Shown in pieces: positions 19,759-44,300 of a stretch of DNA of 64,000 nt (within the stretch, counting starts at the first letter, position 1; every line of letters begins with the position of its first letter). Position numbers and translations under genes: made by a program. This DNA is from Rhododendron vialii (taxonomy: Eukaryota; Streptophyta; Magnoliopsida; Ericales; Ericaceae), in NCBI RefSeq assembly GCF_030253575.1, contig NC_080567.1:38487001-38551000 (forward strand), in the 5' to 3' direction. The notes under the pieces are model-generated. The model saw only the letters and a program-made list of their open reading frames with translations, searched no databases and was not told the origin of the DNA.

Positions 19759-19807
19759 ATCCAATTCACAAAACTACAAAAGGGTTAGTATTTGGAGTAG
19801 AGTATTA

Positions 19808-21828: not shown

Positions 21829-21830
21829 AT

Positions 21831-22574
21831 CACTACAAGAAAAATGGTCATTCCCGGCATTTTTATTACCGGCATTTTAATTAATGCCGGAAAAGCCATT
21901 ATTACCGGTATTTCAAGAAATGCCGGAAATAAATAATTATTACCGGAATTTGTTTTAAAAAAATGCCGGCAAAAGTCGATTTTTCCGCCAAAATAATACC
22001 ATTAAACTATTACCGGCATTTGTTGAAAAAAATGCCGGAAAAACTCTCCGTATAATATAAATATTTTTCATTGTGCAAGGTGACCCAATATGGTGGCTAG
22101 CCCAGTTGGTAGTCTCACGCGTGCGCGAGGCAAAGGTCACGAGTTCAAATCTTGGGGCAAGCAACTTCTCCACAAAATTTGCGCGCCACGTGGCAGACAC
22201 ATGGACCCAATATGGTGGCTAGCCCAGTTGGTAGTCTCATGCGTGCGCGAGGCAAAGGTCACGAGTTCGAATCTTGGGGCAAGCAACTTCTCCACAAAAT
22301 TTGGGCGCCACGTGGCGCACCCAGGTGGCATTTTGTATTATATGGTATAGTTTTTCCCGGCATTTGTTGTACAAATGCCGCAAATGAGTCCAACTATTGC
22401 CGGCATTTATTGAGACCTTTCTCGGCATTTGTACTTTTACCGACACACTCCTAGACGGCATTTGTAATAAATGCCGGTAATACCAAAAAAATGCTGGTAA
22501 TACTCTTTACCGGCATTTTTTAAACTTTTAGCGGCATTTATGAAATACCGGGAAAAGCAAAATTTCTTGCAGTG
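21831..22574. mobile_element. Small non-autonomous CACTA element
   Basis: The left end is CACTACAAGAAAAATGGTCA, and the right end in reverse complement starts CACTGCAAGAAA. Both flanks are packed with the subterminal motif CCGGCATTT in both orientations. It is 744 bp with no transposase. The flanking triplets AAT and AAA differ at one base. The middle is occupied by two tandem tRNA-like units. Confidence 0.85.
22082..22326 (+). mobile_element. Tandem dimer of tRNA-like SINE heads inside CACTA
   Basis: Two 122-bp copies (22082-22203 and 22204-22326) each carry a pol III A box (TAGCCCAGTTGG; 22098-22109 in the first) and, at tRNA-like distance, a B box (GAGTTCAAATCTT in the first, GAGTTCGAATCTT in the second). 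Each copy ends in GCGCCACGTGGC. No poly(A) tail was seen. The dimer sits centrally between the CCGGCATTT arrays. Confidence 0.75.
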
Positions 22575-22582
22575 AAATTTGT

Positions 22583-22690
22583 TTGGATATCAGTAAAGGG
22601 GTTTACGAAATACCCAAATTTTGCTTCTGAAAATAGGCATTTTCAGAAGCAAAGTTTGGGTATTTCGTAAACCCCCATAACGATATCCAA
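22583..22690. repeat. 108-bp near-perfect hairpin
   Basis: The 52-nt arms (outer end TTGGATATC, inner end TTGCTTCTGAAAAT) are reverse complements with only a few mismatches around a 4-nt loop. It begins 8 bp beyond the end of the small CACTA element. It may be a short foldback MITE and would fold like a small-RNA precursor if transcribed. Confidence 0.8.
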
Positions 22691-23575
22691 ATGAACTAAT
22701 TTTTCATTGAGACCTTAAACAAGACGTTTTGAACAAAATGAGCGGCTCCAATCATCTTTGTGTGACCCAAAATAGGTTCAAATCCCATCTATGTGTGTTG
22801 TTTGTTCTTTGAAATCTATGCTGGTAGGCTTTCTGATATCAAATATACATGCAGATTGTTTTGGGAACTCCATATACTTGGTAGTAACTCTACATATATA
22901 GATTTTAATGGGATATAGCCCTTTCCTCCAGAAAAGAAACTCCTCTAAAGATATTGTGGTTGCTAAATCACATAAATTTTGTTCTGTACGAATGAGAGTG
23001 TGAAAACGTTTTTGAAATACATCCTAAATTACTAAAATCAATGAGGACGATGATTGATGCCACTAAAATTGAAAACGGGAGTAGATGGTATTCTAAAAAA
23101 TTATACTCCTATGTGACTAAGGTCACAGGTCACTAGTTTTTGGAACATTATCACGACCAACCAGAGAATAGTTTCCCAAGTGTACACCAAATGATAGTAA
23201 CCATAGCTTTACTACTGAGAATTTCTACCGACTGGGGCTAGTTTAGTTGATTTTGCAGTGTTTGCTTTTTTTTTTTGAAAAACATTTTTCAAAAGATTCT
23301 TCTTACTGCGGATCAAAAAAAAAAAAAGATTCTTCTTACTTTCAATCATTTCTCTTTCTATCTCTCTCCACTTATTATCTCTACTATTTTTTCAATTTTT
23401 TTTTTCAAAAAATGTTCCAAATAAAGCAAGACTCTTGCATCCTCTTAAAAGGTAAGGGTTTGAATCTTTCCCACCTGCGTGTGGATCAGTGGGTTTTCTT
23501 CCCTTTTTACTTTGGTGGATTTGGTTATAGACTCTCGTAATTAATATAGTATCTCGAACTTGTACTTTGTAAATA
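22691..23575. other. Intergenic, no gene recognised
   Basis: AT-rich. The short sequence AAGATTCTTCTTACT is duplicated at 23294-23340. Confidence 0.4.
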
Positions 23576-23706
23576 GGGAAATTGACAGCTAATGACGTGT
23601 TTTGATAATTAATACCTGCTAAAAACAAACTAAAAATATTTGTTAATACTGAAAATATTCTTGACAGATATTAATTATAAAAACACGCATTGACCGTTAT
23701 TTTCCC
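23576..23706. mobile_element. Foldback MITE, family M1, copy 1
   Basis: The imperfect palindrome reads GGGAAATTGACAG ... TTTTGATAATTAATACC, with the complementary order on the right. The same family occurs at 38414-38543. No clear target duplication. Confidence 0.7.
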
Positions 23707-23976
23707 TTGAAAATAATCTCTTACCTACTGAGAGAATTTGTTGTCAGCTCCAACAGTACAGAGGGTCCTAGATTGCAAATTGGATGTGCAAGTTGGAGTA
23801 CATGAAAACAATGGTTGAAACGACCTAGCTTGTTTTCTATTCCCTTTACTGGATGTCATCCTCACCTCCACTTATTTTCAATCAACAAAACTCTACCTGT
23901 TCCGGACTCCGGAGCGTTCGAAGGTGATGGTATAGTCTATAATAAAAACTTGTGTAATTTGTAAAATATGTTTTAT

Positions 23977-24140
23977 GGATAGCTCAGCTGAATATCTGTT
24001 CTGACTTCTCTCTCAGCGAATAGGACGAATTGAGTGGGCGACATCGCGAAGTGGGTTCCTACAATATTTGTAGGATAGATCAGCTAAATACCTGTTCCGA
24101 CTTCTCTATGCGAGTAGGAGAGGAGTTGAGTGGGCAACCG
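23977..24140. repeat. Tandem diverged duplication
   Basis: Two copies contain GATAGCTCAGCTGAATA or a variant, CTGTTCYGACTTCTCT, and GAGTTGAGTGGGC or a variant. Non-coding. Confidence 0.7.
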
Positions 24141-24748
24141 TATAAATTTTTTCTTAATTGACCAGAATACGTAGTATGTTAAAAAACAAACACTAAGAAA
24201 ATAATTAAAAAATGAATCAGAAAGTTACGTGGCAAATTAAACTATAAAAATACATAGGAGTAACATATGAACCAGAAAATTCATAATTAATTAACCTGAA
24301 AATTCTTAAGCACAAAAGGCATATCTTTATTTTTCTAAGGTACACGTTGTTTGTAAACGGTTCACATCTTTTTCCTACGATTAAATATGAAATTCTTCGT
24401 GTGTGTGGGGTGGGTTTTTTTAACAAGTATTCGATTAACCCCAAGGGTATGGTTTGGTGGCTACAGTTTAAAAAATATAAAGAGATTTGCTCACTTTTAA
24501 AGTCTTGAGTTTAAAAATTCTCAAATACTGTCAATCTTCAGTTACACGATTTTTTTCCTGACTTTTAATTGCCACTCCCTGACAGCGGATGGTGTGACTG
24601 AATTCCGGAAAATTATTTATTCGACGTGCTGGGTGCACTTCCGAAAAATTATTTAAGCATAACAAAAGTTGAAGTAACCGATTGTTGTTGGGATGCGAGC
24701 CTCACCTTATCACAAGCCCCATATCTCCCTCACTCTTCCCCCCCCCCC

Positions 24749-24801
<53 letters not shown>

Positions 24802-25506
24802 TTTCGCGTTAGTTGCATGAGGATGCGCATCAAGCATGCATCTAAAATTCCATGCAAATGGATATCCAGAACAATTATTCTACAATCACAACTATTTACA
24901 CAAATTTATTCATATTAAGACCTACACGTACTTACACAAATAGTTTACATATATACTCATATTTTTTAAGTAGAATTCACACACATAGTGAAGGTGTAAT
25001 GTGTATCTAGACTTCAGTACCAAAGAGAGGAGAGGAGAGAGTAGTGGTACTACTACTTTCAAACAAGTAGACTGGCCACCAAACAGTAAAGACAGCAACC
25101 CTCGATTCCTTCCTATTGGTTATAACAAAAAGCGAGATCTAGCAAATCGGGAATTTTTGACTAGATAAGTTTCCCCTCCTTTTCCCTCGTCCGTCCACAA
25201 ATACAATACTAATATAATATATATAATTAATTACAAACATGCAGTAGGGGAAACCCAACCCATGTGCCATCAATGGGGGAAAGAAAAGATAAAATTTAGA
25301 TAATCCAGAGAAACAGCCAAATGCTGGTCCCTCTGTCTAAAGAATTCAATTCGCATGGCCCATGCGAAAGGGAAACAAGATTAAACAAATCGCATCCATA
25401 CTTATATTTCTCATCTAACCACATTTAAATATACAAAAGAAATTTTAAGTTGCAGAAAAGGCATGTTTCAGGACCAGAAGTACACAAATAAATAAATCAA
25501 TATATA
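24141..25506. other. Intergenic with a (CT)n microsatellite
   Basis: (CT)n at about 24751-24796. No gene domain is recognised in any frame; the Ser-Leu-rich open frames come from the microsatellite. Confidence 0.5.
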
Positions 25507-25736
25507 CTTCCTCGATCCGTTCCAAATTTTTATTTTTTACGATTTTACGTGTAATTTTCAATGACCTATATCTCAAAATATATATTATTTAAAATATACA
25601 ATATAGACATTCTTTAATAGATTTTAATTATTTCTATTAAACAATATTTTCAAAAACATAATATACATTGAGAGATATAAGCAATTGAAAGTTGCATGTA
25701 AAATCGTATAAGACTAAGAATTTGGGACGGAGGATG
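25507..25736. mobile_element. Stowaway-like MITE
   Basis: The ends CTTCCTCGATCCGTTCCAAA and (reverse complement) CATCCTCCGTCCCAAAT fit the Stowaway terminus CTCCCTCCGTYCC. TA dinucleotides flank both sides (25505-25506 and 25737-25738). It is 230 bp, AT-rich and folds on itself. Confidence 0.85.
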
Positions 25737-25738
25737 TA

Positions 25739-26828
25739 TTTAATAATTAGGATTATTCTAACATCTGCCCAAAGTATGAAAGTACATTGATATTCGAGAA
25801 AGATGTATTGATATATGTGAAAGTCTGTTGATCTTCGTGAGATATGCATTGATATCCGAATTTGTTTGGAATTATTAACACATTATCATCTGCCTAATGA
25901 GCGGAGGTAATTAGCAAGACTGATGTAATATATACATATATACTCGTAGTAGTATGTTGATAAAAAATAAAAACGAAAGAAGTTTACCTACACAACTTTA
26001 AAGTATACAACCGATGACGCAATTATATCTAGAGCCGTTTGGTGCATGTGAATCCATGCGCACTGAACGACACCAGACGCAATTTTGCTGGAGTTATAGT
26101 TTGAAGTTGTGTATGTAACATTCCTCTAAAATAAAATAAAAAATCTTGAGGCCTGCCTCTTTCTGAGAAAACGTTTGTCTTGTGTAAGTTACTTTTGGTT
26201 CCTAGAAGAAGGGATTTGAGAACGAAAACAAAGGACAATCTTTTTTTTTTTTTGGTAATGAACGCGAGAAACTAACATTAATAAAAAATAATTAAGTTTG
26301 GCGTATTTAATCCCTACAATGTCTTCCTGTTCAATATTGGCAGCAAGAGTTTAAATAATAAAGTTTGGCGTATTTTTAATCCCTACAATGTCTTCCGGCC
26401 TGTTCACTGATTCCAACTTCCTCTTCTCTGTCAACACTGTCCTCCTCTTTGTCATGAACTAATGGTGTGGTTCTGTCTGTGGATACCTACCGTGGAGCAA
26501 GACGAGGTGAAGCGAAGAGAAACCGCCACCAAAGGAAGGAAGGAACTGTGGCTATAAGCGCAACAAGAAGCCGACATATTCCAGTGAGCCCACACGCATG
26601 CATCTACTGTAAAGTATGACTACTTTCCATTTTTCTTCCTTAAATTCTTGCTTTATGTTACTTTCCTAATTTTCCTTTCATTCAACAAACATTGGCTTTT
26701 CTAGGAGCCCTTTACGCAAAGTTCAATGAGATATTTAAAGGTTAGGAAAGTTAATGTCGGTAGCAAAAATGAAGACAAAGCAATTTCCAATTACATTACT
26801 TTAACAAGGATGGAACTGGGGGTAAGTG
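25739..26828. other. Intergenic, left flank of the large CACTA element
   Basis: A direct duplication of AAGTTTGGCGTATTT ... CCTACAATGTCTTCC occurs at 26293-26330 and 26363-26400. No gene is recognised. Confidence 0.5.
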
Positions 26829-27014
26829 CACTACAACAAATTACACAATTGCCGACCAAATTTCCCGACTAAAAAAAAATTTGTCGCCAAATGTTGAACC
26901 ATTACCGACTAAATATATGTTAGTCAGAAAATGTTTTTCTATTTCCCGACTAAATTACTTTAGTCACTAAATTTTGAATTTTGCCGACCAAAAAATATAT
27001 TTAGTCGGGAAATA

Positions 27015-27700
27015 CAGATTTTTTACCAATTTATAAAATTAATAAATGAAATACATTCCCCGACTAATTACTTTGGTCGGCTTTTATTAATAAAACCCGA
27101 CTAATTATTGTTTTAGTAGGCAAATACAAATTTTTTTACCCTATTATAAAATTAATAAATGAAATATATTCCCCGACTAATTAGTTTGGTCGGGTTTTAT
27201 TCATATTAGCAGACTAATTATAGTTTTAGTCGGCAAATACAAATTTTTCTTACCCATTTATAAAATTAATAAATGAAATACATTTCCCGACTAATTAGTT
27301 TGGTCGGGTTTTATTCATATTAGCCGACTAATTATAGTTTTAGTCGGCAAATACAATTTTTTTTACCGATTTATAAAATTAATAATTGAAATACATTCCC
27401 CGACTAATTAGTTTAGTCGGGTTTTATTCATATTGGCCGACTAATTATAATTTTAGTCGGCAAATACAAATTTTTTTTACCGATTTATAAAATTAATAAA
27501 TGAAATACATTCCCCGGCTAATTAGTTTGGTCGGGTTTTATTAATATTAGCCGACTAATTATAGTTTTAGTCGGCAAATACAATTTTTTTACCAATTTAT
27601 AAAATTAATAAATGAAATACATTCCCCGACTAATTAGTTTGGTCGGGTTTTAGTAATATTAGCCGACTAATTATAGGTTTAGTCGGAAAATATCAATTTT
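27015..27700. repeat. Six-unit, about 113-bp subterminal array
   Basis: Six units each contain TTTATAAAATTAATAAATGA or a variant, then CATTCCCCGACTAATTA, then a TTTTAGTCGGCAAATAC-like end. Every unit therefore presents the CCGACTAA motif in both orientations. Period and sequence are well kept across units, which suggests expansion by unequal exchange. Confidence 0.9.
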
Positions 27701-27826
27701 TACTCTCTTTTTAAAAAAATTCACGAAAGGAAAGATTTGTTTCAACTACATTGATCACAATGTTACCTTCCCGGTCGAAACAGTTTTTTTTTTCTTCTTC
27801 TTAATCCTAAAATTCTTATAAAATTT

Positions 27827-28560
27827 TGGCTTGATCAGGTTTAAGGAAAACCCCTTTATCGGCACTCAAATTCTTAAATAAAAATAAATTTGTTGTCCGA
27901 TCAAGTGTCTATTCATATGCGGTTAACTTCATTTTTTGTATGAATAATTTTATTCGTATTATGTCAAAGATAGATAGTTTCGATTACCAAAAAAGACCTT
28001 AGGCGGGACTCAGTTAGTGGTCTATAACATTTAAACGTCTCCAAACGCATTAAATGTTTTTCGATCAGGTGATCTTCAATATCGAATGATCTCCAATTTT
28101 GGTGACAATACTATAATCAGTAAGATGTGAAATCCTAACGGTTCATATCGGGCATTATGAAAATGACTCGGTAGTTGCCTTAATTTACAATCTGTACTTT
28201 TGATCTTCTTGATAATCAACTAAGTCTTATGTTGCTCTCGTTCTTGCAGTAGCCACACGATTGCAAGACAATGATCATGACAATCGGGATCGTTGATTTT
28301 GTAGCACTCGTTGAATTATTCATTCTTGTGACTTTGTGGCTCGATCAGATTTAGAAAACCCCTTTTATCAAGAAATGAACTCATTAGAAAAATAATATTT
28401 TTTGTTCGATCAATTGTCTAACGGAAAACGATTAACTATAATGAAGTTGATCGCGTATCGTTAAACACTTGATCGGACATAAAAATTTCATTTTATCAAC
28501 GAATTTGCATACCGATGAAGGGGTTTTCTAAACCCGATGGAGCCAAAAATTCGCATGAAT
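27827..28560. repeat. Direct and inverted repeats within the CACTA left interior
   Basis: A segment with GATCAGGTTTAAGGAAAACC and TTGTCCGATCAAGTGTCT (27827-27925) recurs directly at about 28335-28440 and inverted at about 28460-28545 (GATGAAGGGGTTTTCTAAAC). The last two form a large imperfect palindrome. Non-coding. Confidence 0.7.
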
Positions 28561-29729
28561 GATCTAGTCGACAAGCTCAAGGAATTCAACGGTATCAATC
28601 GTCATGTTTGTATTGTAGTTGCATGACTACTATACATTCACCTATAGCAGATGACTTAGTTTACTACAAAATAAGTTGAACGTATAGATTCTAAAGATTA
28701 TTGTTTAATCTATTCTTATAATGGGCAATCTAAACCGTTGGAATTTCATAATTTACCAATTCAATTAGTGCCATCAAAATCGGAGATTATCGGATATCAA
28801 CAACTACTTGATCGGAAGACATTTAATTCATCCGAAGGTATTAAAGTCTCATAATGCACCACCTGAACACCACTCGAGGTATTTATTTGCAATCAAAACC
28901 GTTCATCTTTTGTACGTTGTAGAGTAGATCATTCCTACTGAAAATGAAGTTTAACGGATACACGTAACCACCTCATTGGAATAGTTTAGTAAAGCCGACA
29001 AATGATTAGACTTATCTAATTTTTTTACTGTATAAACGTATTTCGATGAGGTAGTTGAGGATGTTCGATCAATTTGAACTTTCATGTGGGAATTCAATTT
29101 GATGAATCCTACAAGATGAATGGTTCGGATAATTAAGTAAAAATCCGGACGTTAAGAACTAATTGCACCATTCATTGAACCGGCACCGTTTCATGTGTAA
29201 TGCCCAATATTCCACTACAGTGAATTACAAATAGAATACTTAAAATGACACCGTTTAAGACTCACTATTTACCCTTTTCCCTTCCAAAACACATTTCAAT
29301 CTCCCGCAACCTAGAGCTCGAAAAATTTCAAGTCTCGCGCTAGAAAATTTTCCCAGCACTTCCAATCTCCCGTTACCTAGGGCTGCTGCCTCTTCAGAGA
29401 CTTGGAACGATCATCTCCAATAACCTCGTCTTCTCCCCCATTTCGTCTCTTCCCAGAGCCAAACTCCTCAAAACCCTTGGCCAACAGTCTCGTCTCCGAC
29501 CTCGTCAATCGCGCGACTGCTACAGTAACACGTCAGCGGCCAGGGCTACTGTAGCCTCGCATCGCCCCGTCTCTTTCTCTCTGTGGTTGTTCTGTGTTTG
29601 TTGTTGAAGGCAAATCCAGATACGGGCAAAGAAGTCGAGGACGGCGACGGCGCAGGTCTTGCATTGGAGGTAATTTCTTCCGGGTTTTCTTTCTTTAGAC
29701 TCGATTTTTGGTGGTTTCGACTTGTGGGT

Positions 29730-29767
<38 letters not shown>

Positions 29768-30036
29768 GGTGACGGTGCTGGAGAAGAGGTTTCCGATTGT
29801 GGGTTTTCAGAGAATTCGATTTTGGATTTTTCTGGGTTTTCTTTTTGCAGAATCGATTTCTATATAGAACCCTAGTTTCTATGTAGAATCAATTTCTGTA
29901 GATAGTAGATACCTGTGTAAAACCCTAATTTTGATTTTTGAAATTGCTCTATTGTTACAATATTGAATAAGATAAAAGATTTTGTTCACGCTACACTTCT
30001 GCAAGAACAGTTAAAAACTTCATCTCCTTGTGATAG
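28561..30036 (+). other. CACTA interior upstream of captured exons, with 5'-leader-like region
   Basis: From about 29270 base composition becomes C-rich and leader-like, with a duplicated AATCTCCCG...ACCTAG element and then a frame ending in ACGGCGCAGGTCTTGCATTG before a GTAATT donor-like site near 29670. A (GA)n tract lies at 29731-29763. It may be the promoter and first exon of the captured gene, but no protein family is recognised. Confidence 0.4.
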
Positions 30037-31815
30037 AGTATGTGCGAGTTGTAATTCCGAGATTGGTTACGGAAGATTTCTGAATTGCTTGAATATATGC
30101 AGTTTGGCATCCTGAATGTTTCAGATGCCATACCTACAACCAACCAATTTGTGATTATGAGGTAAAAAAACTACTATCTATGCTGCCAAAATACTCTAGT
30201 TCTATTCTGATTTGAATGTTGGACCATCAGTGTACATTAGTAGTCAATAACTGATGTAGAATATTAATTCCTGTGATTTTTTTGGTGCTGAGGTTTTTTG
30301 CATATTGCTTCTTCTGTAGTTTTTGTTGTCTGGGAATTATCCTTATCACAAGTTTTGCTACAAGGAGCACTATCACCCAAAATGCGACGTTTGCAAACAT
30401 TTTGTAAGTATCTTCCAAGTGTCAAGAAATAACTTGTTGATTCTATCTTGCATAATCAGGTTCTAGTGCGAATGGGAAAATTTTAATTCTTCACAGTGCA
30501 ACATGTACTGCATCAAATCTGTATTGTTGTTTCCTTTTTTTTTTCTTCTTTGGACTGAATCATGTTGAAATTTTTTGTGGCCGTGTCAATAACGTTCATG
30601 CCTTTGCATGTCATATCATATAAAGCAATGAATTGATGTCCATGTATTTTGTTGTACTTTGCTATTGCAAATGACAGTGCTTTAAATATATGAAAAAAAA
30701 TTGTATGTTGTGGTGACCACTGACTTTTATTGTTGTTGTACATTATGAAATCTACTTGAGCTTTAATCATACGGATTATAATTAGAACTTAAAAGGAAAA
30801 AATAGAAGAAGCAGCTGGACTGTTTTCTTTTCTTCTGTGACTTTATTTTGATGTCTCTGAAAACTGTTGAGGGATATTAATGAATAGATCAAAATCTTGT
30901 TTTGCCATCAAATACTATCCTGAGATCAAAATCCTAATCTGGGGTCACATACTAACCCAAGTATCCGGGTGGATTCCCTTGAAATTCTATTGTTGCCCTA
31001 GTTCCTTGGAGCAGGTGGTATCACAGCACACTTGCCTTCAATTTTTAGGCTAACAACTGCTGCAACATGTCCTGGAAAGAACAATTGTTTCTTCTTTTTT
31101 TCTTTTGGTTGGACAAATTCTCTGCCATGCTCCTCTATTTGACTTCTGGAGACTAGAAATCCAGGGAAGCTTTCTTATAAGTAAATTTTTCTACCCAAAT
31201 GTTAGCTTCTTGTTGCAATGGGGCCTCCACTCTTTGCTCCCATTAAAAATGCCAAGGGGAATGCCTAGAGAGTTGGATTAGCCAAACTCTTAACCAATTT
31301 ATTAATGATGATACCAGGTAAATATAATCCAGTGTCGTTCTAAATAAACTCAGCAAGCCCATATCCTCCACAAGGCTACTTTGTAGATTTACAAGAGTTG
31401 GTCTAACATAGCTTTAAATGTCCTCATGCAAATTTTTACCTGGGTTTCGGTTGGGAGAACGTGTTGCGGTGTCTTAAACATCTTCGACTTCAAGTATTGC
31501 GAGTCTTGGACATTTGAACCTCTATTCTAACCTGGGCACCTAGGTTCATCTTATGTAAGGAAATCTCGGAAACACTAAAAGGTTTTGTGAATTGGCATCT
31601 TTTTGTAGTGTGAAACTATTACACTTATCTTTCAAGTTCCATTTCTTATCAATTCATGCTGGTCCTTTTTAAAAGTTTTATGATTTTTTTTCCAGATACC
31701 GACAAACGCTGCTGGTCTTATAGAATATAGAGCACATCCTTTCTGGGTCCAGAAGTATTGCCCCTTTCATGAACACGATGGGACTCCTCGGTGCTGTAGC
31801 TGTGAGCAAATGGAG
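30037..31815 (+). pseudogene. Captured DA1-like LIM-domain exons
   Basis: Three exon-like blocks are joined by GT/AG introns: about 30037-30161 (VCASCNSEIGYGRFLNCLN, then WHPECFRCHTYNQPICDYE), 30320-30403 (FLLSGNYPYHKFCYKEHYHP then KCDVCKHF) and 31696-31815 ([20 protein letters not shown] then [20 protein letters not shown]). Together they match the LIM region of DA1/DAR proteins, ubiquitin-dependent peptidases that limit organ size. The ubiquitin-interacting motifs and the C-terminal HEMMH peptidase are absent. The first block changes frame between LNCLN and WHPEC. The second cysteine of the CFRCxxC pair is Tyr (TAC at 30135-30137). It sits wholly within the CACTA element, hence capture. Whether it is transcribed cannot be told. 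Confidence 0.85.
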
Positions 31816-33168
31816 GTTAGTTTAACTTAAATACAATTGATCTAGCGATTTCTTTGGGTGTGCAAAGGGGCATCTGAATCCCATTCCCAGTGATTCCCTT
31901 TTTTCATTCTTGCTAAATTTTAATTTCTAGTGTACATGTGTACCTTAGTTTTATCAGAAAGAGAGGGATTTTATTCCCTTCCTGTCAAATAACAGATGGA
32001 AGTCAGTCTGAGTGGCCATATAGATTGAGATTACTTAGGAAAAAACTACTCAATAATTAACTATTCGTGGTTTAGTTTCGAATTTTTTTGTTGGGTAATC
32101 CATAAACCATCAGTTACCGCCCCCCAGAAAATCCCAACTACAATAAATTGACCATAGCTATCGCACGAAGTTAACAAAAAAGGTGGTTAGTTGGAAAATT
32201 GTAGGTCTTACTGTTACAATTAACTGTTTTTTACATGTTTTACAGTAGCTATTAGCAGTAACAGCAGCATCAAACATCAGTAGTAACAAACAGCAGTGAC
32301 AAACAATAACCAACAGTAGCAGTAGCAGCCAAACAACATAGCACACAACCACATATCTACTGGTACCAGCACAACAGCAGAATAGCAAGCATAACAGCAA
32401 TATACCAGAACACAAAGCTTTGAACCTACTTTAGCTACTGAGATGAATCGTTAAACACCAGCAAAACAATTCTGATCTGACAGAACAGCAGCAACAAAGG
32501 CTCCACCATGACAAGCAGCAACTAGCAGTTGTAATTCAGAGGATATCTAGGGACATGCCCCCTAGGAAAGCTTAAACCACCCAAGGGACAACCCCCACGG
32601 GTAGGTACAAGACAGAGGGATATACCCCCAAGCTCACAAGCACATGAACATCATAGAACAAATGCTTACCAATGAAACTAAATGAAATTAGTCATGGTCC
32701 AGTAAGTTTATTACAGAACAGAGTCAATCAAACAAACACACAGATATACAATGCCCTTGGTATGTTCTTTGTTCTGTAGTCCACAGCTGTCCGGCAACAT
32801 GCTGTCCAGCAATCTGCTGCTATCCTGCTACTGTTATGCTGCATTTTCTGTCTAACTTTGGTATTTTGTTGCTTTGAACCCTGCTTTGGATGCTGCTGTT
32901 CTGTCTAGCAACTGTAAAGTTCTGTCCATTACTTCCATGTCATTTTTGTAATGCTTAGGAGTCCAAACACTTTTCTTACTGCTGCTACTGTCCAGTTCAG
33001 TTGCTGCCAATCACCCTCTTTTGCATGTGTTTCCCTCCCATCTATTAGATGGACTTAAAACATGTGGTGTTTGATATGGTGTTTGTTATGGCTCAATCTG
33101 TCCATTTTTCATTTAGCCCTTGGCTTAGATCCTTGTAGCCACTTGGCTTATTTTCTGTTAGTTTACAG
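31816..33168. other. Long intron-like stretch in the CACTA interior
   Basis: A low-complexity segment rich in CAGTAGCAG/AACAAC triplets spans about 32240-32420, with related CTGCTGCTA-rich sequence in the opposite sense at 32780-33000. No exon is recognised. Confidence 0.4.
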
Positions 33169-33325
33169 GTGCACCTTCAGCAAAGCGGCGGCGTGTGCGA
33201 GGGCCAACACGTGGAAAAAGAATTAGAAGGATAATTGCTGAGAATAAAGGGGAGAGGATCTCAGCTTATGTGACGCCGGAAATCTATGGTACATGGGAGC
33301 AGGGTGATGGTGGCTCAAATATATG
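33169..33325 (+). pseudogene. Exon resembling Ptta/En-Spm transposase N-terminus
   Basis: The block between an AG acceptor (33168) and a GTACG donor (33326) reads GAPSAKRRRVRGPTRGKRIR, then IIAENKGERISAYVTPEIYG, then TWEQGDGG. The RRVRGPTRGK core is typical of the conserved start of plant CACTA-encoded Ptta/En-Spm family proteins. Phase is compatible with the preceding LIM exon, which ends on a complete codon at 31815. The rest of the transposase protein is not found downstream. Confidence 0.6.
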
Positions 33326-36100
33326 GTACGTAGTTTGAGAATATCTCTTTTAGAATTTACTTTGATGCTAAGTAGGAAATCTGGACTGCATTTTTTCTTG
33401 CTGCTTCTGTTTTTTTGGTGTATTGCGATTGGAATGCTTAAAAAAGGTTGAAGCTGGTTGGGTGTTGGTTCCACAACAGTCATTGGATTGCATTCATAAA
33501 GCTAGGAAACCAGTTTTGTGACTGCCATGGACCGAATATGCTAGGGAAGAACTTCAAACTTTTTTCATTCATTCATTCATTCATTCATATAAAACCACAT
33601 TACAGATGGGTGTTTGGCATTTGGAGTGCATGTGCTTCTCATGGCAATGCTAGGAATATGCTTAATTTCATGTGTCCTTTGTTTTTGCCGAATCTGATAT
33701 CTCTATTAAAAGGGTAGAGGAAGAAGGATTGAAAAGAATTAGAGTTTGGCTATTGATTTTAAGGAAAGTCTGTATTTTGGTTTGATTATGCAAAAAAAAT
33801 GGAAGTGATGCATATCTCTTTCCTGTTTTGAGAAATAATACAACCATGGATATCTGAATGTGTAGTTTAGGTTCTGATTAGGTCATGGGATATGAGTTTT
33901 ACTTCAGAAAAATTCGATTAGCTTATGGCTGGGTATACAAGTTAGAGTTCGAACATAAACGAATTTTCCCGGTTCTTGATGAATTTTTATAACCAACTTT
34001 CCGACCTTGAAATTTTTCAATATTTTTATAAGAGATGCCTCTATATGTCTAATTTATTGTGTAAAATCTGTAGAACTGAATTTAAAACGTGGAAGGAATT
34101 AAAAATCATATACTGAACTGCTGTTGCGAAACTCTCAAAGCTGACAGCACTGTCGCACTTCACGGAAACGGCTATAACTCTGCCTAGAAAACTCGAAATC
34201 ACATTCCGCTTTCTTTGTTGGAAACTAGACACATAGAGCTTCAACTATATGTAAGCCATGTGCCTTAGTTGTGCCTGACTAATAACAGATTTCAGTTTGA
34301 AGTTGGCCTAAAATCTGTTTTTTGGAAATCACTGAGTTTTTGGTCTAGTCGGTACCTGTTTAAAAATACTTCCCAAGGTCAGGAAATGCATTCATTTTGA
34401 TATGATCTTCATATGTCCTGGGTTTGTGGTAAAAATCTTATGGAGAACATGGACCAATAGTCTGGTCGTCTTGCGATTTCCTTATTCTTTTGCAATAGCC
34501 AACATGTGTTCTTTCACAAGAGTAGTATTTATCCTACTAGACTGAAGCGTTTATTTTCCACTTGGTGATTCATTGCAGAAGTTCATTAGCTAAGTTCTTA
34601 TACTTGGTCAATTGTGCATCTTCCATTATTGTTTCCGTGGTCTAAAACTTGTACATTTGGATAAGTCAAATAGACCTTCATTTCGCTGGAAAAAGGAAAA
34701 GCATACCTGCTCCATTCCATTTTTGTTCACTAGGACTTGGTGATTTGTTGCCCAAGTTCATTAACTAAGTTCTTAGACTAGGTTAATTATGCATCTTCCA
34801 TTACAGTTTCAGTGTCTTTTTTAACACACTTGCACTCAGAAAAATGGGAACTTTATCAAACAAGTCTCTATTACACTGGGAAAAGCATACCTACTCCATT
34901 CCATATGTATGTAAATTTAAGTTGCTTGGCACATGTTATGGTCATGACATGCATTATGGAAAAAGTATGGTAATATGTGACGTTGATGCCTTTGTTGTCT
35001 ATTTTCACTGCGTCCATTTTGTCATTTTAAATTGGTACTATGGATATGCGAATCAGATCATGATGCTACTTCTTTATTCTTATACATATTGCCTGCCTTG
35101 CAAATTTGCAATGTAAGTTATGTAACTATAAAAAATTATTTATGGATCTTGCGAAGTTACATGCTACGAATTTACATGCTATTAATTTTAGGACAATCCA
35201 TTCTTACTTTTCTTACTTCAGTGATCATTTTTCTTAGAGGTTCCCAGTCACACTTTACATGGTAGTTTTTTAAAAATGGGTTATCTTTGGTTATTCGCTT
35301 TGCTTGTACAACACCCGATAAAGATAGCTCTTGTTCAAAGCATAAAAACCTAGGGATAAAATCCACTGGTTTCCAATTATTTGGTGTGAACATGAGTTCC
35401 CATATGGATTCTAATTTCTATAGCTCTGCTGCTGGGGTAAATTAAGCACAAGGGATATGACTATATCATGCTGCTGGGATACAGACCCTAAGCTGAGGAG
35501 TTTCTATCTTGGGATGTTGTCTATATTATGTTTCCATTTTTTAATGCTGCTTGTTGTGAGACGGGTCAGCTTTTTATGCATTAAGAGGCACAAAATGTCA
35601 AGATAATTTTCCGTTTTGGCTTTTACTTAGTATCTACCTATGTTCATGCTTTAAAGCAATGGGATACACTAGTTCATAAATACTAATGGGGGATTGTTTT
35701 TTTCTATTCTTTTTGTACAGATTGACGCTTAACGGAGTATCCTGCAGTTCTACTTTTGGTTATTGACTATGAAGATCAAAGTTGGATTTTGGTTGCGAAC
35801 GTGCAAATGTTTTTGGGTTATCCAATTGTTGAGGTTGAACTTTTTAGTATTTTGCAATCTAGGAGTTTTGATACATTTTGTTATTGAGCTTGGATTTTTT
35901 TTTTTAATTTCCCCCTCATGGTGACATGTCGTTATTTTACGTTTTAGGAATTTGGATAAAAGTTGTTTTCTAATTACTTGGTGGACATCTCTATTTATGA
36001 AAGTTTGGATTTATTTTTTGGAATTTTATTTTTTATTAAATACATTATGTTGCAATTTTGTGGATGAAAATAAATTTTACAGGGCCGCTCAAATTTACAA
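33326..36100. other. CACTA interior, 3' part
   Basis: Contains an ATTC microsatellite (33566-33588), a duplicated segment at 34561-34910 and many short open frames. No transposase or peptidase domain could be recognised. Confidence 0.4.
34561..34910. repeat. Tandem about 175-bp duplication in CACTA interior
   Basis: Shared landmarks are CTTGGTGATT, AAGTTCATTARCTAAGTTCT, GCATCTTCCATTA and GCATACCTRCTCCATTCCAT. The copies start near 34561 and 34736. Confidence 0.85.
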
Positions 36101-36149
36101 GGAATGAATGGAGAAAAAATTTGTAGAAAATTATGGGATATTGACCAAT

Positions 36150-36637
36150 TTGTACGGACAATAAGTACATTACCCGACTACCAGTTGGTCGCCAATAGGG
36201 TATTTATTTGTTGAATTGCACACACAATTCCCGACTAACAATTTAGTCGGCAAATAGGGTATTTATTTGTTGAATTGCACACAATTCCCGACTAAGAATT
36301 TAGTCGGCAAATATGTAAACATTCCCCGACTAAATAATTAGTCGGCCAATAGGTACCATATTCTCCGACTAAACATTAGTCGGCAAAATATGTACACATT
36401 TCCCGACTAAATAATTAGTCGGCCAATATGGTAAACATTCCCCGACTAACCATTAGTCGGCAAATATGATATATTTAGCCGACTAAACTTTTTTTAGTCG
36501 GCAACAACCTTTGCCGACCTTCTTCCACCGACTAATGTGCCGACCAAAATTTTTAGTCGGGGAAGTCTTTTGCCGACTAAAATTCGTACCATTGCCGACT
36601 AAACCATTAGTCGGGAATGGTGTTTTTTCTTGTAGTG
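36150..36637. repeat. Right subterminal CCGACTAA array of CACTA
   Basis: More than ten CCGACTAA/TTAGTCGG motifs in alternating orientation, spaced about 15-40 bp, run up to the right terminus. Two adjacent copies of GGGTATTTATTTGTTGAATT are also present. Confidence 0.9.
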
Positions 36638-36756
36638 GTGGCAGCAGTCGCCATGACAAAAATTTTAGAAAATGCAATTATTATATGTGAAATTTTTTTT
36701 AATTCTTAACTTATATAGTTTCGCCACTGTTAATTTTTTTTTCTTATTTTTTATTA

Positions 36757-36948
36757 CTCCATCTGTCCCAAAATGTGATATAAAAATAATACAATTTTTG
36801 CAAGAAAATTTTAAATTTTCAACAATTCACTAAATATCGATGAATTCTTTTAATTTATGAAAAAAGTTTGAATTTTTTTATTGAAAGAAATGTATTATTT
36901 TTTAGTTCTCATTTTGCGAACCCGACAAACATTTTGGAACGTAGGTGG
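36757..36948. mobile_element. Stowaway-like MITE
   Basis: The ends CTCCATCTGTCCCAAAATG and (reverse complement) CCACCTACGTTCCAAAATG match, with TA on both sides. It is 192 bp and AT-rich. Confidence 0.8.
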
Positions 36949-37115
36949 TATATACTAGTCATAAATCTTCCTTTTCTTTTTTTCAAGAAAGGAGACCCAA
37001 AAAAGTATTCCAAAACTAAATTCAATGAGCTAAAGTGAAATAATATAAATGATGGTGTAATTAAGAAAAAAAAAACTCCACACTCCAACCCTAAAATAAC
37101 TTAACCTAAAAAATT

Positions 37116-37260
37116 AAGGAAAATTAATTATAATGCCACTCCCCAAATTTATAATGCCACTCCCAAAAGGGAGTGCGATTATCAATTTAGAAAATCCATA
37201 TAAGGATCTGGAGAGTGACATTATAAATTGGGGGAGTGACATTATCAATGTCCAAAATTA
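37116..37260. mobile_element. Short inverted-repeat MITE
   Basis: TTATAATGCCACTCCCCAAA on the left is mirrored by TTTGGGGGAGTGACATTATC-like sequence on the right (about 37222-37250). The motif ATAATGYCACTCCC is also repeated within each arm. Confidence 0.65.
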
Positions 37261-37976
37261 AAGTTAGTCTTTTTTTTTTGTACTCCATGTGCAAATGACT
37301 ATTAATATTGCAATGCATCTTTTTATTTTTTTAGTATACGTTTTGTCACTGCTAGGATAAAATCCTTGTTCTGCCCTTATTACTTACCCTCGTAGTGTCT
37401 ATTAACAAGAGCAGATATGTGGGAACACCACCTTCAATAGGAATTTGAGTACCATTTCCGTTTTGACTTTTTTTCACCACATTGAGTTTGTTTTGTGTTT
37501 AATGCACTCCTGTGTGACTAAGCTAATTAAATTTCATGTGACAACTATAGAAAAGTCATATTCGATCATATAGCCTTCACCGATTCTTTAAACATTAATA
37601 AACAAATTAGGAAAAAAATCAGCGCACCAACAACCAATGCATGTTTTCAATTCATCTATAATCATATGTTTGGCCAAATCATCCAACACGCTTATCCAAA
37701 AATTATTTTATTTTGGTCATTTGGGTATTTTTTTTCTTTCTTCAATCTCTCTGCAACTTTTTTTAATCGCCTGGAGTTATTTGTCAAGAGTTTTTAAAAT
37801 TTTAATAAGTGTCTCAATTAGTTCTTGATTTACATGTGTACCCCTTTGAGTCAACAAAGCGTAACAAAATGCCCCGTGCATCAATTTAGGAGTTTTTTGG
37901 GAGCTAAAAATGTGACAAAGCTTCTAATTAGAAGAGAAGACACCAAAAAGGCTCCTTTCTATATAAGAGAAGACTA

Positions 37977-38120
37977 GAGGCCGGGTACACGAAATACGTG
38001 TGCAAATCGAATTTTAATAGAAAACATGCATAATAGTTTCCCGCTTTGTTTGTTTGATTGAATTTTAACAAAAAAAATATAAAATTCAATTTGCACAGGC
38101 ATTGCATGTGTCCCAACCTC
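37977..38120. mobile_element. 144-bp MITE with TA duplication
   Basis: The about 40-bp imperfect inverted repeats start GAGGCCGGGTACACG and (reverse complement of the right end) GAGGTTGGGACACATG, both continuing to TGTGCAAATYGAATTTT. TA flanks both ends. Confidence 0.75.
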
Positions 38121-38413
38121 TAATAGGATATAATGGAAAGGATGAGTACCTTCGGGTTCTTCCTTCTCAGCCTAGACTTGAAAACGATGACAGTCAAATC
38201 AAACCAATGGTCCCAGTGAGATTTTTATAATAAGTGCATGGATGCAATAGTCTGACTATATTGGTCTAACGTATAGAATCGAGCACATACATCTTATGGG
38301 AGGGATATGGGTACCGAGTTATGTGGGATCCATAAATGCTTTCTTTCTCTTTTTCTCATTGAATTCGCAAACCAAACAGGGCCTTACAGAATTTTCTAAT
38401 GGTTTTTTTTTTG

Positions 38414-38543
38414 CGAAAATGACGGTTCAGGATGTGTTTTGATAATTAATACCCTCCAAGGACATGCTAAGAACAATTGTTAATGCTGAAAACGTCCTTG
38501 GCGAGTATTAATTATCAAAACATGCCATTGGCCGTCATTTTCC
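38414..38543. mobile_element. Foldback MITE, family M1, copy 2
   Basis: An imperfect palindrome with TTTTGATAATTAATACC and its complement TATTAATTATCAAAACA, the same family as 23576-23706. The arms are better paired here. Confidence 0.75.
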
Positions 38544-40692
38544 TTCTTTTTTTAAAAATTTTCTGGGAACATAACTGGGCCAATGCCCTTAACAGGAACC
38601 TTGGGATCGTACACTGCCTTGTAAGTACAAACAAACAACTAGTCTGGCAATGGGAAAGTGTTGGGCTTATTAGGTTGAATCGACGAGACTGGGCGGGCCT
38701 TTGTTAAATGGGCCACTTTGGGCTTAGCTCTCGGGGTGCGGGCTCACTTTACAGCCCAATGACTGATAACATGGTCCGCTTGTGAAGGGGAGGGGCAAAA
38801 AGTGAGTTTCAATCAAATTATAAAGTAGACCAAAATAAAAAATAAAATAAAATTGTAAAGGTTCAAATTCAAATTTATCCCCCAAAAAATAAAAATCCAA
38901 ACATGTTGGTAGACTTTATTCCACATCACTTATCTAAAGTACCCAAACTTGGTTAATATGGTCTAGAGGTTACTCCACCTATTGCTAATTAGTTTTAGGT
39001 TGGAACCCTTCAAGAAATCTAAGATGATATGACGGTTATGTCTTGGACGTCCTCACCTCGCGCGATCAAGTATTCGTTGCCCAAGGGTAATTGCCTCATC
39101 TCATCAATTCATTCCTCCACGTGCATCCGAGTTGCATGAGAGAAAAAATATTAGACTTTATCCATCAACGTTCATTACCTAAGGCATCTAAACTTTATTA
39201 ATATAATTTAGAGGTTACCGCACTTATTGTCAATTAGTCTAAGGTTGAAAATCCTTCACGAAATCTAACACACTTTATGATGCCTTTCCAGTAGCAAATC
39301 TCATTTTACCAAACACAAAACTTCTCTTTCTTGATGCATCTATTGGAGTACTTCAGAATGCCACGTGTTTGTGATACTGAATATATAACTGTAAAAAATG
39401 TGGTTACCTAATCAAACTCGAAATTAAAGAAAGAAGGCAGTTTGACCTCCTGATAGGCTGCTAGCATAAAACAAATTAAAGCTCAATCACGAAATGGGGG
39501 ACACCTGCTGTCCGTCCCTGGGTTAATCTATCACAAAGAGGTCACATGAAGGCTTAAACGCAAAGAGCACAGTAGCACACACATGACTTCCTGTTTGCAT
39601 AAAAGAAAGGCCTAACCATGGGGTCGAGCCCTAAAAAGCTAGATCACATCACATGGCCCCAATCACCGGTTGTTGCTTCCGAGTTCTGACTTTACTAATA
39701 AGTTAAAACTGAACGGTTCCGATACTGAATGAGCATGCCCTCGTCGAGGGTGAACAAAATTGCTCTTGTAGTAGTAAAATTTGTTAACTGAGCTATTACT
39801 GATCTTAGTGGCTTGACATTGAATTTACTTATTACTGGAGATGGCCTAAGGTTCTTTCTACTGAGCTAACCTCAAAGTTAGCAGGCCTCTTTTAATAGTA
39901 GCATGCATCTTCAAGCTTATGATAGCTAAAATGACACACGCTTAAGTCAAAATTTGACATGCTATACTATTACTATAATAAATGGCCTTATCAACTTTCC
40001 TCCAACGTACCACCATTTCTTCACTTTCTTTCTAATTTGTCTAATGCAAATGGTACGTCGAATCCTATCAAGAGAGAAGAGGGAATAATCTTGTCAAAAT
40101 CTGATAGATAAACAACCCTAATGTCATTTATTTGTCATCTTCAAAACCATTCCTTTAACCATGCATTTTCTTTTTGTCTTACGGTAAGGGATGTCTAAGC
40201 TAACTTACGCGTACCTCGACTCTAATTCTCTTCCCATTCCGATCAAAGCAAACCATTCTCGCCGGAAATACGAGTTCATAATAAATTACTTTCTTGAAAC
40301 CGGACCCTAAAAATCGAATGCGATAAATTGTATGACAGAATCTACGTGTGAATGGTGGTAAATTTCCTCCTTACAGAGGCGGTTTGGTCAATGGAGTTAC
40401 CCTTCCAAATGAGTAATTATTTCATGTTTGCGGCGGTATATATCTTAAACTCTTTTCTAGCACAAATTTGTATGAGTTTCACATACTTTGTTGTAAGAAT
40501 CACACAAATGTATGGTAGAGAAAGAGCTTGAGACATTGATCACATGGTGATATCCAGGGCACCAAATAATATTCCCTTCCAAACACCCTCTCTTATTTGG
40601 GTTTTGAGAGAAATTTTTAAAAAATACTAGTAATGAATAGTAAAAAATAGATAAAGAAAACTTGCTCAAGGGTTTTTTGAGGCAAAAAAAAC
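38544..40692. other. Intergenic, no gene recognised
   Basis: A diverged direct duplication of about 110 bp (TTTAGAGGTTACYNCAC..ATTG, then TCTAAGRTTG-like) lies at about 38905-39020 and 39150-39265. No conserved coding sequence. Confidence 0.45.
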
Positions 40693-41098
40693 CAGAAAGA
40701 CTACGGCCACCGAAGGAAAAAAGCGGTGGCCGGCCACCGAACGCCCTTTGGGGCCCACTCCGGGCCCCTCACAGATGATCCGATCCATTCAATAATTTAA
40801 AAAAAAAAACCGAGTGGATCACTCAAGAAATCAGCTCGATCCGATATGTGTAGGTACTCGGATCAAGCTTCTCATCTTTGGAAAATCGAAAAAATGGTTT
40901 TTCCGATTTTCCAAAGATGAGAAGCTTGATCCGAGTACCTACACATATCGGATTGAGCTGATTTCTTATGTGACCCACTCAGTTTTTTTTTTTAAATTAT
41001 TGAACGGATCGGATCATTCGTGCGGGGGCCTGAAGTGCGCCGTCACGGCATTCGGTGGTCGGCCACCGCTTTTTTCCTTCGGTGGCCGTAGTCTTTCT
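40693..41098. mobile_element. Foldback Mutator-like MITE in the promoter of the choline-transporter-like gene
   Basis: Arms of nearly 200 bp pair around a short loop near 40893. The outer ends read AGAAAGACTACGGCCACCGA and its complement. The 10-bp duplication CAAAAAAAAC flanks it (40683-40692 and 41099-41108). Arm sequences such as GGCCCACTCCGGGCCC and ATCGGATTGAGCTGATTT are shared in arrangement with the foldback at 17131-17509, so the two are related. Its right end is 255 bp before the ATG at 41354. Confidence 0.9.
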
Positions 41099-41353
41099 CA
41101 AAAAAAACGAACAAGCATGGTGTGGCGGACTGGATAATTTTCTCCACGTGTAAGCCGGCTTTCCATTTTCTCTTTCTCGTTTCCTTTTCGTCGACTTCCG
41201 AATAACCAAACATCATCATCTTCATCTCCACGATAATCATCTTCTTCCTCACAGGAGACAGCTCATTTCATCAGTCAATCGTATGACTCCCACGCTCATC
41301 TCTAAACAACTCCAACACTTCTCTCTCTCTCTCTCTCTACTATCTCTCTCTGA

Positions 41354-44300
41354 ATGGGTAGCACCGAAGACCAACCCCCTAACCCCTACACCCTCCCGGA
41401 CCCCTCCTCAACCCAACCCCTCCTCTCCAAACCCTACCCACCATCCCTAACCCACGAACCCGTCGCCCTCCTCTCCGATCCAGACCCAGACCAATCCAAT
41501 TACCTCCAGATCTCCTACCACTCCGGCCCGAGGCCCATCAAAGACCTCCCCTTCCTAATCCTCTTCGCCCTCTTCCTCCTCTCCACCTTCGCCTTCGGCA
41601 TCTTCGCCTCCGTCAACCGAAACCCTGACTCCTCCTACGCCTCCTCCTACGTCTACGACTCCAATTCCACCTCTTGCGTCATAGACTCCTCTCTCTCCAC
41701 AAATCACCTATCTTTGAACTCCTCTCTGTCAACCAGTTTGATCTGGACGCTCGTGATCACGTTAATTATCAGCGTGCCCTTTGTACTATCCGTTCTTTTG
41801 TTACTCAAGCATTTCACCAAACAGGTTGTGTACATCTCGCTTCCCTTTTTCATCATCGTACCGATACTAATAAACGTGTACTGGTTCGTTGCCTGTACTG
41901 TTGACTCTTCTTGTAGCGATTTGTTTCCGTTGGTGTATAGAATTTTGGTTCTGGTGTTTGTGTTTTTGGTAATTGGGGTGGTTGTGTGGATAGTTGTGGT
42001 GAATTGGCACCGGATAGAATTGACTGTTAACATTATTGGGGTTGCGTCTCATGCCTTGTGGCGGAACTTGGGTTTGTTTGGGGTTCTTCCAGCTTTGACT
42101 TTGGGGTTGGTTGTTTATTACGTTCCCATTGTTGTGTTTTTGGTGTTTGCGAACGAGAATGGGGAGATTGTGGTTCGGTATAAGAGCGAAGAGTATTATT
42201 GTGCTTGGAAGCAAGATAGTTGGGTTCCCGCATACTATGCGCTGGGAATTCTTACGATGTTGTGGTCTGCCGCAGCAATGGTGGAAGCGCAGGTTTATGT
42301 GACTAGTGGGACTATTGCACAGTGGTACTTTTCCAAGGATGATTCGGGTCCAAGGCGGAGTATACGGAATTCTCTAAGGTAATTTCCTGCCGACGTTAGC
42401 TTCGTTTGTTGCTTGCACCATTCTTTTATGGAGTTTGTTTCATTTGCAGAGAAGTTGGTATTAATTTTCTTTTGATGCGTGATAGTTTTGGTTAGTACGC
42501 TACCATGTTTAAAATTTTGCATATGAGTGAAAGACGTTTAACTTGGATCCAGTGTGGGAATAATCTGTCCCCATTGCCCCTTATGCTGGATGTTATCATC
42601 TTAGTCAGTGCCTGAATCGGCATCAAAGGGCTCACCCTATTACCCTTACTAGACTCAAAAGACTTTCCAGCACGGTTTGCTGGGCGTAATGACTATCAAT
42701 AGAAGCATTCTAGCCTCTCTTTTTTTAGAGAGAAACGATTCCCTCGTCTGAGAACCGCCATTCACGCACTATTCCTCCCCACTAAAAAGAGCGATTGAGA
42801 ATCTCGAGAACCTAAAAAAAAATGCAGAAGTGAGCGTACCCCAAGGAAATCAATACAATAAGACAGACCGACCTTTGAACTCTTTGTCTCTACCCCCGTA
42901 GTCTCCCGAAGATCTATTAAGGCTAGTAGCTTGACCCCCAATAAAATGTTGCTTTCAAAAGTTATGGAGGTTATTTTGAAATCCATTATGTAATAGTGAC
43001 AAGTTATATCTATGTGCATAGGTACAACGGGAGCTAAATAGAATGCAATCTAGCTGTAAGTCAAAAGTAAAAGCAGGGGAAAAGAATCATGGTGCATTGT
43101 TAGCATTGAGCATGTTGTGAGATTATTATTAAGTGATCTCAAATAAAAAAGGGAGACACAAAGTGACACTGTATGTGAAAATTGGAGGAGAGGGTGAATT
43201 TTGTATGTGTTGGGTCCATTGTTGGTCATGCATACCTATGTAGCTTGCAGAAATCTCTTTCAGCAAACGGTCAATAATCAAATGAGAAAAGATCTAGGAA
43301 TCACGTCTGCCTTAGCCTAGCTGAAGGAGGATGCCAATGTGGATGACTGGTCAATGGCATTAATGATAAATTTGACGTTGCACCAACAGAGAGTCAAACG
43401 GAAGTTGAACTATATGGTCTGTCTTGTGTGAGAATTGAGATAGTCCATGAGTGCATTAGCAAGAAGTGTTATGATTCAAATAAGAGGTGGTGAAAGATCT
43501 ACAGGAAGGGCAGGGCGATTTGTTTGGGTTTGTCTTGCTACAAAAGAGAAAAACCAAGGGAAACAATTGTAACATTGTGTGTTTGCATGTGCTAAGATGA
43601 ATAAGTCTTTGTGGAGTTGAGTGGTGTATAGAATTAATAGATTTTTGGCTAATCTTATATGATTTTCTTTCTAAGCTCCGTGGAGCCAATATATGGAGTA
43701 GAAATATGTTTGGGGTGATATCAGCTGCTTCGAAACACGTCTATCCGTTGGTAGTTGTTGCTCCAGGATCATGGAGATGCAATGGTTAATACCCACACTT
43801 CTTTTGATACCTAAATATATTACTTGATATGCTACTAGAATTGGTAGTAAGGTTTATAAGGAAGTGGTTTTAAATGCCCAAATAACTTGTATTCTCTGGC
43901 TCAAGGAAATATGCAATCATTCGTTGTGGCTATGAGATACACCCATAAACCATTTCACATGCATACTATCAAAATATTGACTTTTCACTTGGTCGATCTC
44001 GGATTGTCTTAGAAATTGAAAATTTAAGTTAGTAGTAATTTGAAAACCTATTTCTGAAATCAAACCTTTTTAGGTGAGAGCATTGGTTGAGTTCGTGTCA
44101 ACCTGATTTTAAGAGTTCAGTTGATCCATTCTTAGTGGAGCTGTTTGTCAGTCACTGCATGACCTCCAAACCTTATTTAAGGAGTCAAGGTTTCAAACAA
44201 TTCTCATATCCATTGGTGGATGTAAGGACATAGATTATTGAAAACTAATTTGTTAAACTTGTCCTCAATGCAAGATCAAATGAATGAAAGTATTTTCCTT

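What the first reader, a model, noticed from the sequence alone, without database searches (positions are those of the whole stretch)
26829..36637. A 9.8-kb CACTA transposon that has captured DA1-like LIM-domain exons
Sequence shows CACTAC termini, a GTG target duplication, CCGACTAA subterminal arrays at both ends, and between them three exon-like blocks matching the LIM region of DA1/DAR organ-size regulators, introns included. Family knowledge: CACTA elements are known to capture host gene pieces. Inference: this is a Pack-CACTA that copied a DA1-family gene at DNA level, because introns are kept, and it could alter DA1 regulation through chimeric or antisense RNA.
Basis: partly seen in the sequence, partly recalled or inferred. 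Interest (0 to 1): 0.82.

Follow-up and report, generated by a model that had tools for sequence, protein, structure and literature searches.

The report
CACTA transposon carrying a DA1-gene fragment
A plant jumping gene of a well-known type carries a broken three-exon piece that looks like it came from an organ-size gene of the DA1 family; this is a clean but ordinary example of gene capture by a transposon.

Summary
26829-36637 has the hallmarks of one CACTA element. Its ends start CACTACAA (24 of 30 bases alike, hand count). GTG flanks both sides; of 39 CACTAC...GTAGTG pairs in the window only this one has matching 3-base flanks. All 39 CCGACTAA copies in the window lie in its two ends (chance mean 0.99).

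Inside, three spliceable blocks on the + strand encode a LIM domain plus part of a second, LIM-like finger. The spliced product just passes Pfam's LIM cut-off. Its two confirmed bacterial relatives both carry DA1-like peptidase domains. Introns remain, so capture was of DNA. No DA1 peptidase or transposase was detected in the element, nor DA1 on the + strand about 9.9 kb either side.

The piece is decayed: exon 1 has a 4-base frameshift and a zinc-ligand Cys replaced by Tyr, and the predicted chimera stops 21 codons after exon 3. A working LIM protein is unlikely.

Best reading: a non-autonomous Pack-CACTA, a new member of a known kind. Any effect on DA1 genes is untested. The host genome search did not complete, so donor, copy number and empty site are unchecked.

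The parts
26826..26828 (.). Target site duplication GTG, left copy
   Evidence: only matching pair of 39
26829..26858 (+). Left terminal inverted repeat, CACTACAACAAA...; 24 of 30 bases alike with the right end (hand count)
26865..27699 (.). Left subterminal array: ~113-bp units holding 20 CCGACTAA copies in both orientations
27840..28610 (.). Long imperfect inverted repeat between left array and leader; strong predicted hairpin, perhaps a nested foldback element or MITE (inference)
   Evidence: I1, I2, I4, z -8.35, 0 of 20 shuffles fold as well
29290..29669 (+). GC-richer leader-like block ending in a possible splice donor (GAG|gtaatt); no ATG in 29290-29668; probable 5' untranslated exon of the element's gene (inference)
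   Evidence: sequence
29969..30161 (+). Captured DA1-like exon 1, first part of the LIM domain; 4-nt frameshift at 30095-30098; zinc-ligand codon reads Tyr at 30135-30137; 5' boundary uncertain
30320..30403 (+). Captured DA1-like exon 2, end of LIM and start of LIM-like finger; acceptor TAG, donor GTAAGT
31696..31815 (+). Captured DA1-like exon 3, LIM-like finger; acceptor CCAG, donor GTTAGT
   Evidence: no tblastn hit from the bacterial relatives
33169..33325 (+). Exon-like block, KRRRVRGPTRGKRIRRII..., resembling the second (TNPA-like, Ptta/En/Spm) gene of plant CACTA elements by recall; truncated
   Evidence: no Pfam match, so identity not confirmed
35721..36070 (+). Possible last exon / 3' region of the element's gene after acceptor TGTACAG; 3' end arbitrary
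36165..36614 (.). Right subterminal array: ~38-bp units, 19 CCGACTAA copies
36608..36637 (-). Right terminal inverted repeat, CACTACAAGAAAA...
36638..36640 (.). Target site duplication GTG, right copy

Best explanation
A non-autonomous CACTA (En/Spm-type) DNA transposon of a plant that carries a genomic fragment of a DA1/DAR-family gene (a Pack-CACTA). Shown here: ends, matching flanks, subterminal arrays, three LIM-type blocks with introns, no transposase or DA1 peptidase detected inside. Inferred: it moves, or moved, by cut-and-paste when a related autonomous element supplies transposase that binds the CCGACTAA arrays; the DA1 piece was trapped when two neighbouring CACTA copies were mobilised as one, the model published for Pack-CACTA; the piece sits between a leader-like block and the second-gene-like exon, where the transposase gene usually lies (recall), and may be spliced into non-coding chimeric RNA. 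The piece appears to be drifting without selection for protein function.
For: TIR and the only matching GTG flanks among 39 end pairs; 39 of 39 CCGACTAA in the two ends; Pfam LIM 23.8 bits against cut-off 22.9 for the spliced piece; 2 of 2 confirmed bacterial relatives (of 8 pattern matches) carry LIM and DA1-like PF12315; introns and splice sites kept; 0 Pfam families in six frames of the element, while the same kind of scan did find a choline transporter next door; no DA1 domain on the + strand about 9.9 kb on each side; frameshift and C-to-Y. Capture model: passages of PMC8903248 and PMC13317346.
Against: No empty site, second copy, donor gene or autonomous partner could be sought in the host: the genome search gave no answer in 11 tries. 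The six-frame Pfam scan also missed the LIM exons that are there, so its silence on short exons is weak. The LIM match is only 0.9 bits above cut-off and needs my splicing and an X at the frameshift. The DA1 (rather than other LIM) assignment rests on bacterial relatives picked by a shared exact peptide, on the second finger and on recall; exon 3 had no tblastn hit from those relatives, and no plant protein was available. The TNPA-like exon is not confirmed.
Confidence: 0.85

Rival explanations
1. The LIM exons belong to a resident DA1-family gene or pseudogene and the CACTA ends flank it by nested or chance insertions rather than having carried it.
For: Exon order and splice sites look like an ordinary gene; no empty site seen; the scan for flanking exons is of limited sensitivity (one search missed known exons).
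Against: No DA1-like domain on the + strand about 9.9 kb either side; the right side gives only a choline transporter; peptidase exons not found inside either; one matched pair of ends with one flank duplication and one type of array.
Confidence: 0.06
2. The element makes a functional product from the captured piece: a LIM decoy, or sense/antisense RNA or small RNA that silences the donor DA1 gene.
For: Exons 2 and 3 keep open frames, finger cysteines and splice sites; a strong hairpin lies upstream; captured pieces in Helitrons, Pack-MULEs and Sireviruses of maize are reported as siRNA sources for donor genes (review PMC13317346, passages; CACTA not named there); Tgm-Express1 fragments are spliced into chimeric RNAs (PMC1947982, abstract and one section).
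Against: Frameshift and lost zinc ligand in exon 1, no ATG in the leader block, stop 21 codons after exon 3 in the predicted chimera. The hairpin does not contain the LIM piece. No expression data.
Confidence: 0.07
3. The captured LIM belongs to another LIM family and not to DA1/DAR.
For: Pfam hit is generic LIM only; the best PDB matches are animal LIM proteins; exon 3 is not hit by the bacterial DA1 proteins in the window.
Against: A second finger with CxxC/CxxH pairs follows directly, as in the LIM-like region described for DA1 family members (PMC5322733 passages); the two bacterial relatives found are LIM plus DA1-like peptidase proteins, and their pairwise alignments with the spliced piece reach into exon 3 at 25-27% identity.
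Confidence: 0.06

Closest known systems
Pack-CACTA elements of Arabidopsis and maize (PMC8903248, passages; Catoni 2019 cited there, itself not held)
   Same: CACTACAA ends, flank duplication, host coding DNA inside, no transposase found
   Different: Different host gene (DA1 type); about 9.8 kb; copy number and mobility unknown here
Tgm-Express1 of soybean (PMC1947982, abstract and section 6)
   Same: CACTA-type ends around host exon/intron pieces with usable splice sites
   Different: Tgm-Express1 holds five unrelated gene fragments and sits in intron 2 of a flower-colour gene; here one gene type, and no interrupted gene was detected
Gene-fragment-bearing CACTA elements of Chenopodium (PMC8978399, passages)
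   Same: Gene fragments in the 5' part, upstream of the element's coding part
   Different: Those described hold Neprosin or AP2 pieces upstream of a conserved domain (TAD) of the element's coding part

Membership tests
CACTA (En/Spm) superfamily | Terminal inverted repeats starting CACTA | tested here: met
   CACTACAA at both ends
CACTA (En/Spm) superfamily | 3-bp target site duplication | tested here: met
   GTG/GTG, 1 of 39 end pairs; no empty site seen
CACTA (En/Spm) superfamily | Dense subterminal direct and inverted repeats | tested here: met
   20 + 19 CCGACTAA, none elsewhere in the window
CACTA (En/Spm) superfamily, autonomous | Transposase (TNP2/TNPD type) gene | tested here: not met
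   0 Pfam families in six frames; the scan misses short exons but found a choline transporter nearby
CACTA (En/Spm) superfamily | Second gene (TNPA-like) | tested here: inconclusive
   33169-33325 resembles it by recall; Pfam silent
Pack-CACTA | Host coding DNA between the ends, no transposase | tested here: met
   LIM exons with introns; absence of transposase is by Pfam scan only
Pack-CACTA | Identifiable donor gene elsewhere in the genome; more than one copy of the element family | not tested
   The genome search gave no answer
DA1/DAR family | LIM domain | tested here: met
   PF00412 23.8 bits, cut-off 22.9, after splicing by hand and an X at the frameshift
DA1/DAR family | LIM-like finger after LIM | tested here: inconclusive
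   CDVC, CPFH and CCSC present in exons 2-3, which could be three of the four pairs mentioned in PMC5322733 (pairing is my inference); no plant sequence to align
DA1/DAR family | C-terminal DA1-like peptidase (PF12315) | tested here: not met
   None detected in the element or + strand flanks: a fragment, not a member gene
DA1/DAR family | N-terminal ubiquitin-interacting motifs | tested here: inconclusive
   Residues before the LIM (KIKDFVHATLLQEQL...) could be a remnant; no Pfam match

The most novel reading that the evidence does not exclude
The captured LIM piece persists because its RNA (chimeric read-through, or small RNA from the element) tunes an intact DA1-family gene in trans, making this transposon a mobile regulator of organ size.
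Probability: 0.05. Interest if true: 0.65.

Novelty: new member of a known kind. Interest (0 to 1): 0.27.

Why it matters
It is a tidy, well-delimited case of DNA-level gene capture by a CACTA element. The probable donor family is a growth regulator of interest to breeders, so genome annotators should not count this fragment as a DA1 gene, and it could be used to date a capture event once donor and copies are known. It does not change the understanding of CACTA elements or of DA1.

Tried and rejected
So donor, copy number, empty site and autonomous partner remain unchecked.

Viral contigs: the LIM piece matched no pattern. Element against the rest of the window: only a 21-base match at E below 1e-3, so no second copy nearby. 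Joined flanks against the window: only the two flanks themselves. Rfam and ARAGORN found nothing in the window.

Literature: two searches pairing CACTA with DA1/LIM terms (18 of 18 listed, none on this topic by title, 0 papers), one for DA1-type peptide strings (0 papers) and one for Pack-CACTA and gene fragments (25 of 158 listed) showed no report of a CACTA element with a DA1 piece in what was listed. A search for TNPA-like peptide strings found one unrelated paper. This covers only the open-licence library. One search was used to find DA1 papers; passages of three were read, none printing the peptide strings sought in two of them.

Considered and rejected: a generic LIM, a resident gene, and antisense capture (the LIM blocks and the element-like exons are all on the + strand).

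Full report
Observation. Both ends of 26829-36637 begin CACTACAA; over 30 bases 24 agree (counted by hand). The three bases outside are GTG on both sides. In the whole window there are 39 CACTAC...GTAGTG pairs 0.2-20 kb apart, and this is the only one with identical 3-base flanks. CCGACTAA is found 39 times where 100 shuffles give 0.99 on average and 4 at most: 20 copies in the left array, 19 in the right, none in the interior and none outside. The left array is made of about 113-bp units, the right of about 38-bp units. These are features of a CACTA element as summarised in the passages read of PMC8978399.

Interior. Three blocks on the + strand can be spliced at usual sites: about 29969-30161 (donor gtaaaa), 30320-30403 (TAG acceptor, gtaagt donor), 31696-31815 (CCAG acceptor, gttagt donor). 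Spliced by hand, with an X at a frameshift, they match Pfam LIM at 23.8 bits, just above the cut-off of 22.9, and the best PDB matches are animal LIM domains at E about 5e-5. The DA1 assignment rests on three things. First, a second finger follows the LIM directly, with CDVC, CPFH and CCSC; PMC5322733 (passages) describes a LIM-like motif of DA1 family members and four CxxC/H pairs in related Roseiflexus proteins. That these are three of those pairs is my inference. Second, a scan of genome contigs (one genome for each of 84,980 bacterial and archaeal species) gave 8 pattern matches, of which 2 were confirmed relatives (a Caldilineales genome and Kistimonas); both carry LIM and the DA1-like peptidase domain PF12315. 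Third, exon 3 resembles plant DA1 proteins that I recall; that is a lead only.

Control and its limits. tblastn of the two bacterial proteins' LIM regions into the window gave 30.0 bits for the best single hit and 58.9 for the best ordered pair, above all 60 dinucleotide shuffles (maxima 26.9 and 44.6). The two proteins had been picked because they share an exact peptide with the window, so this control is not independent. With whole proteins as queries the single E-values were weak (0.024 and 0.040 at best), and exon 3 was not hit in the window, although pairwise alignment with the spliced piece reaches into it at 25-27% identity.

Decay. Exon 1 changes frame: it is read 29969-30094, then four bases, then 30099 onward. 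Its LIM finger reads CHTYNQ where both bacterial relatives (sequences) and the 3 PDB chains shown have Cys; by LIM knowledge this is a zinc ligand. Exons 2 and 3 stay open. Joined to the next exon-like block, exons 2-3 run 21 further codons and stop. The leader-like block 29290-29668 has no ATG. A working LIM protein is therefore unlikely.

Rest of the element. A block at 33169-33325 (KRRRVRGPTRGKRIRRII...) resembles, by recall, the second gene of plant CACTA elements (TNPA-like); Pfam finds nothing, so this is not confirmed. Its frame reaches a stop at the predicted junction with 35721 (read by hand; the script used one base too many there and gave a stop a few codons later). No Pfam family, hence no transposase, was found in six frames. 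That scan also failed to see the LIM exons, so it is weak for short exons; it did see a choline transporter nearby. A long inverted repeat at 27840-28610 folds far better than its shuffles (z -8.35, 0 of 20); it does not include the LIM piece.

Surroundings. On the + strand, 16900-26828 gave no family except one match below its cut-off (Desmo_N, E 0.058), and 36638-46566 gave only a choline transporter. So no DA1 gene was seen to continue past the element. The minus strand of the flanks was not scanned by Pfam.

Mechanism. Introns are kept, so the capture was of DNA, not of a spliced RNA. The published model for Pack-CACTA is that neighbouring insertions are mobilised together, taking in the DNA between them (PMC8903248 and PMC13317346, passages). 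That fits but was not tested here. The LIM piece lies between the leader-like block and the second-gene-like block, where a transposase gene would usually lie (recall), so it may have replaced it. Transposition would need transposase from another element. Chimeric splicing as in Tgm-Express1 (PMC1947982, abstract and section 6) is possible. An effect on DA1 genes through siRNA is possible, as the review reports for captured genes in maize Helitrons, Pack-MULEs and Sireviruses, but nothing here shows it.

Verdict. It is a new member of a known kind, with modest interest. The main gap is the host genome, which could not be searched. The species was not determined; that it is a plant follows from the genes and the transposon type by general knowledge.

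Noticed in passing
21831-22574: A second, much smaller CACTA-like element of another family: ends CACTACAAGAAA / CACTGCAAGAAA, flanks AAT/AAA (imperfect), and 10 of 10 CCGGCATTT copies of the window within it.
   Followed up: partly
22082-22323: Inside that small element, two tandem 120-nt copies 122 apart (95% alike), each with tRNA-type A-box and B-box pattern matches: looks like a dimeric tRNA-derived SINE. ARAGORN and Rfam report nothing.
   Followed up: partly
27840-28610: Strong imperfect hairpin inside the CACTA element (z -8.35), perhaps a nested foldback element and a possible source of small RNA.
   Followed up: partly
40694-41098: Two 201-nt arms, 89% complementary, 3 nt apart, with CAAAAAAAAC on both sides, just upstream of the open frame at 41354 that belongs to a choline-transporter gene: a MITE-like or foldback insertion.
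   Followed up: no
17158-17496: Two 163-nt arms, 88% complementary, 13 nt apart: another foldback or MITE-like repeat.
   Followed up: no
36766-36919: A diverged inverted repeat just outside the right end of the element (162-base match of the right flank to its own opposite strand, 70% identity).
   Followed up: no
19804-20900 and 53925-54747: Inverted pairs of 150-272 nt, 79-88% alike: probably two copies of one repeat in opposite orientation about 33-35 kb apart.
   Followed up: no
14917-15354: Open frame resembling, by recall, the C-terminal dimerisation region of hAT transposases.
   Followed up: no
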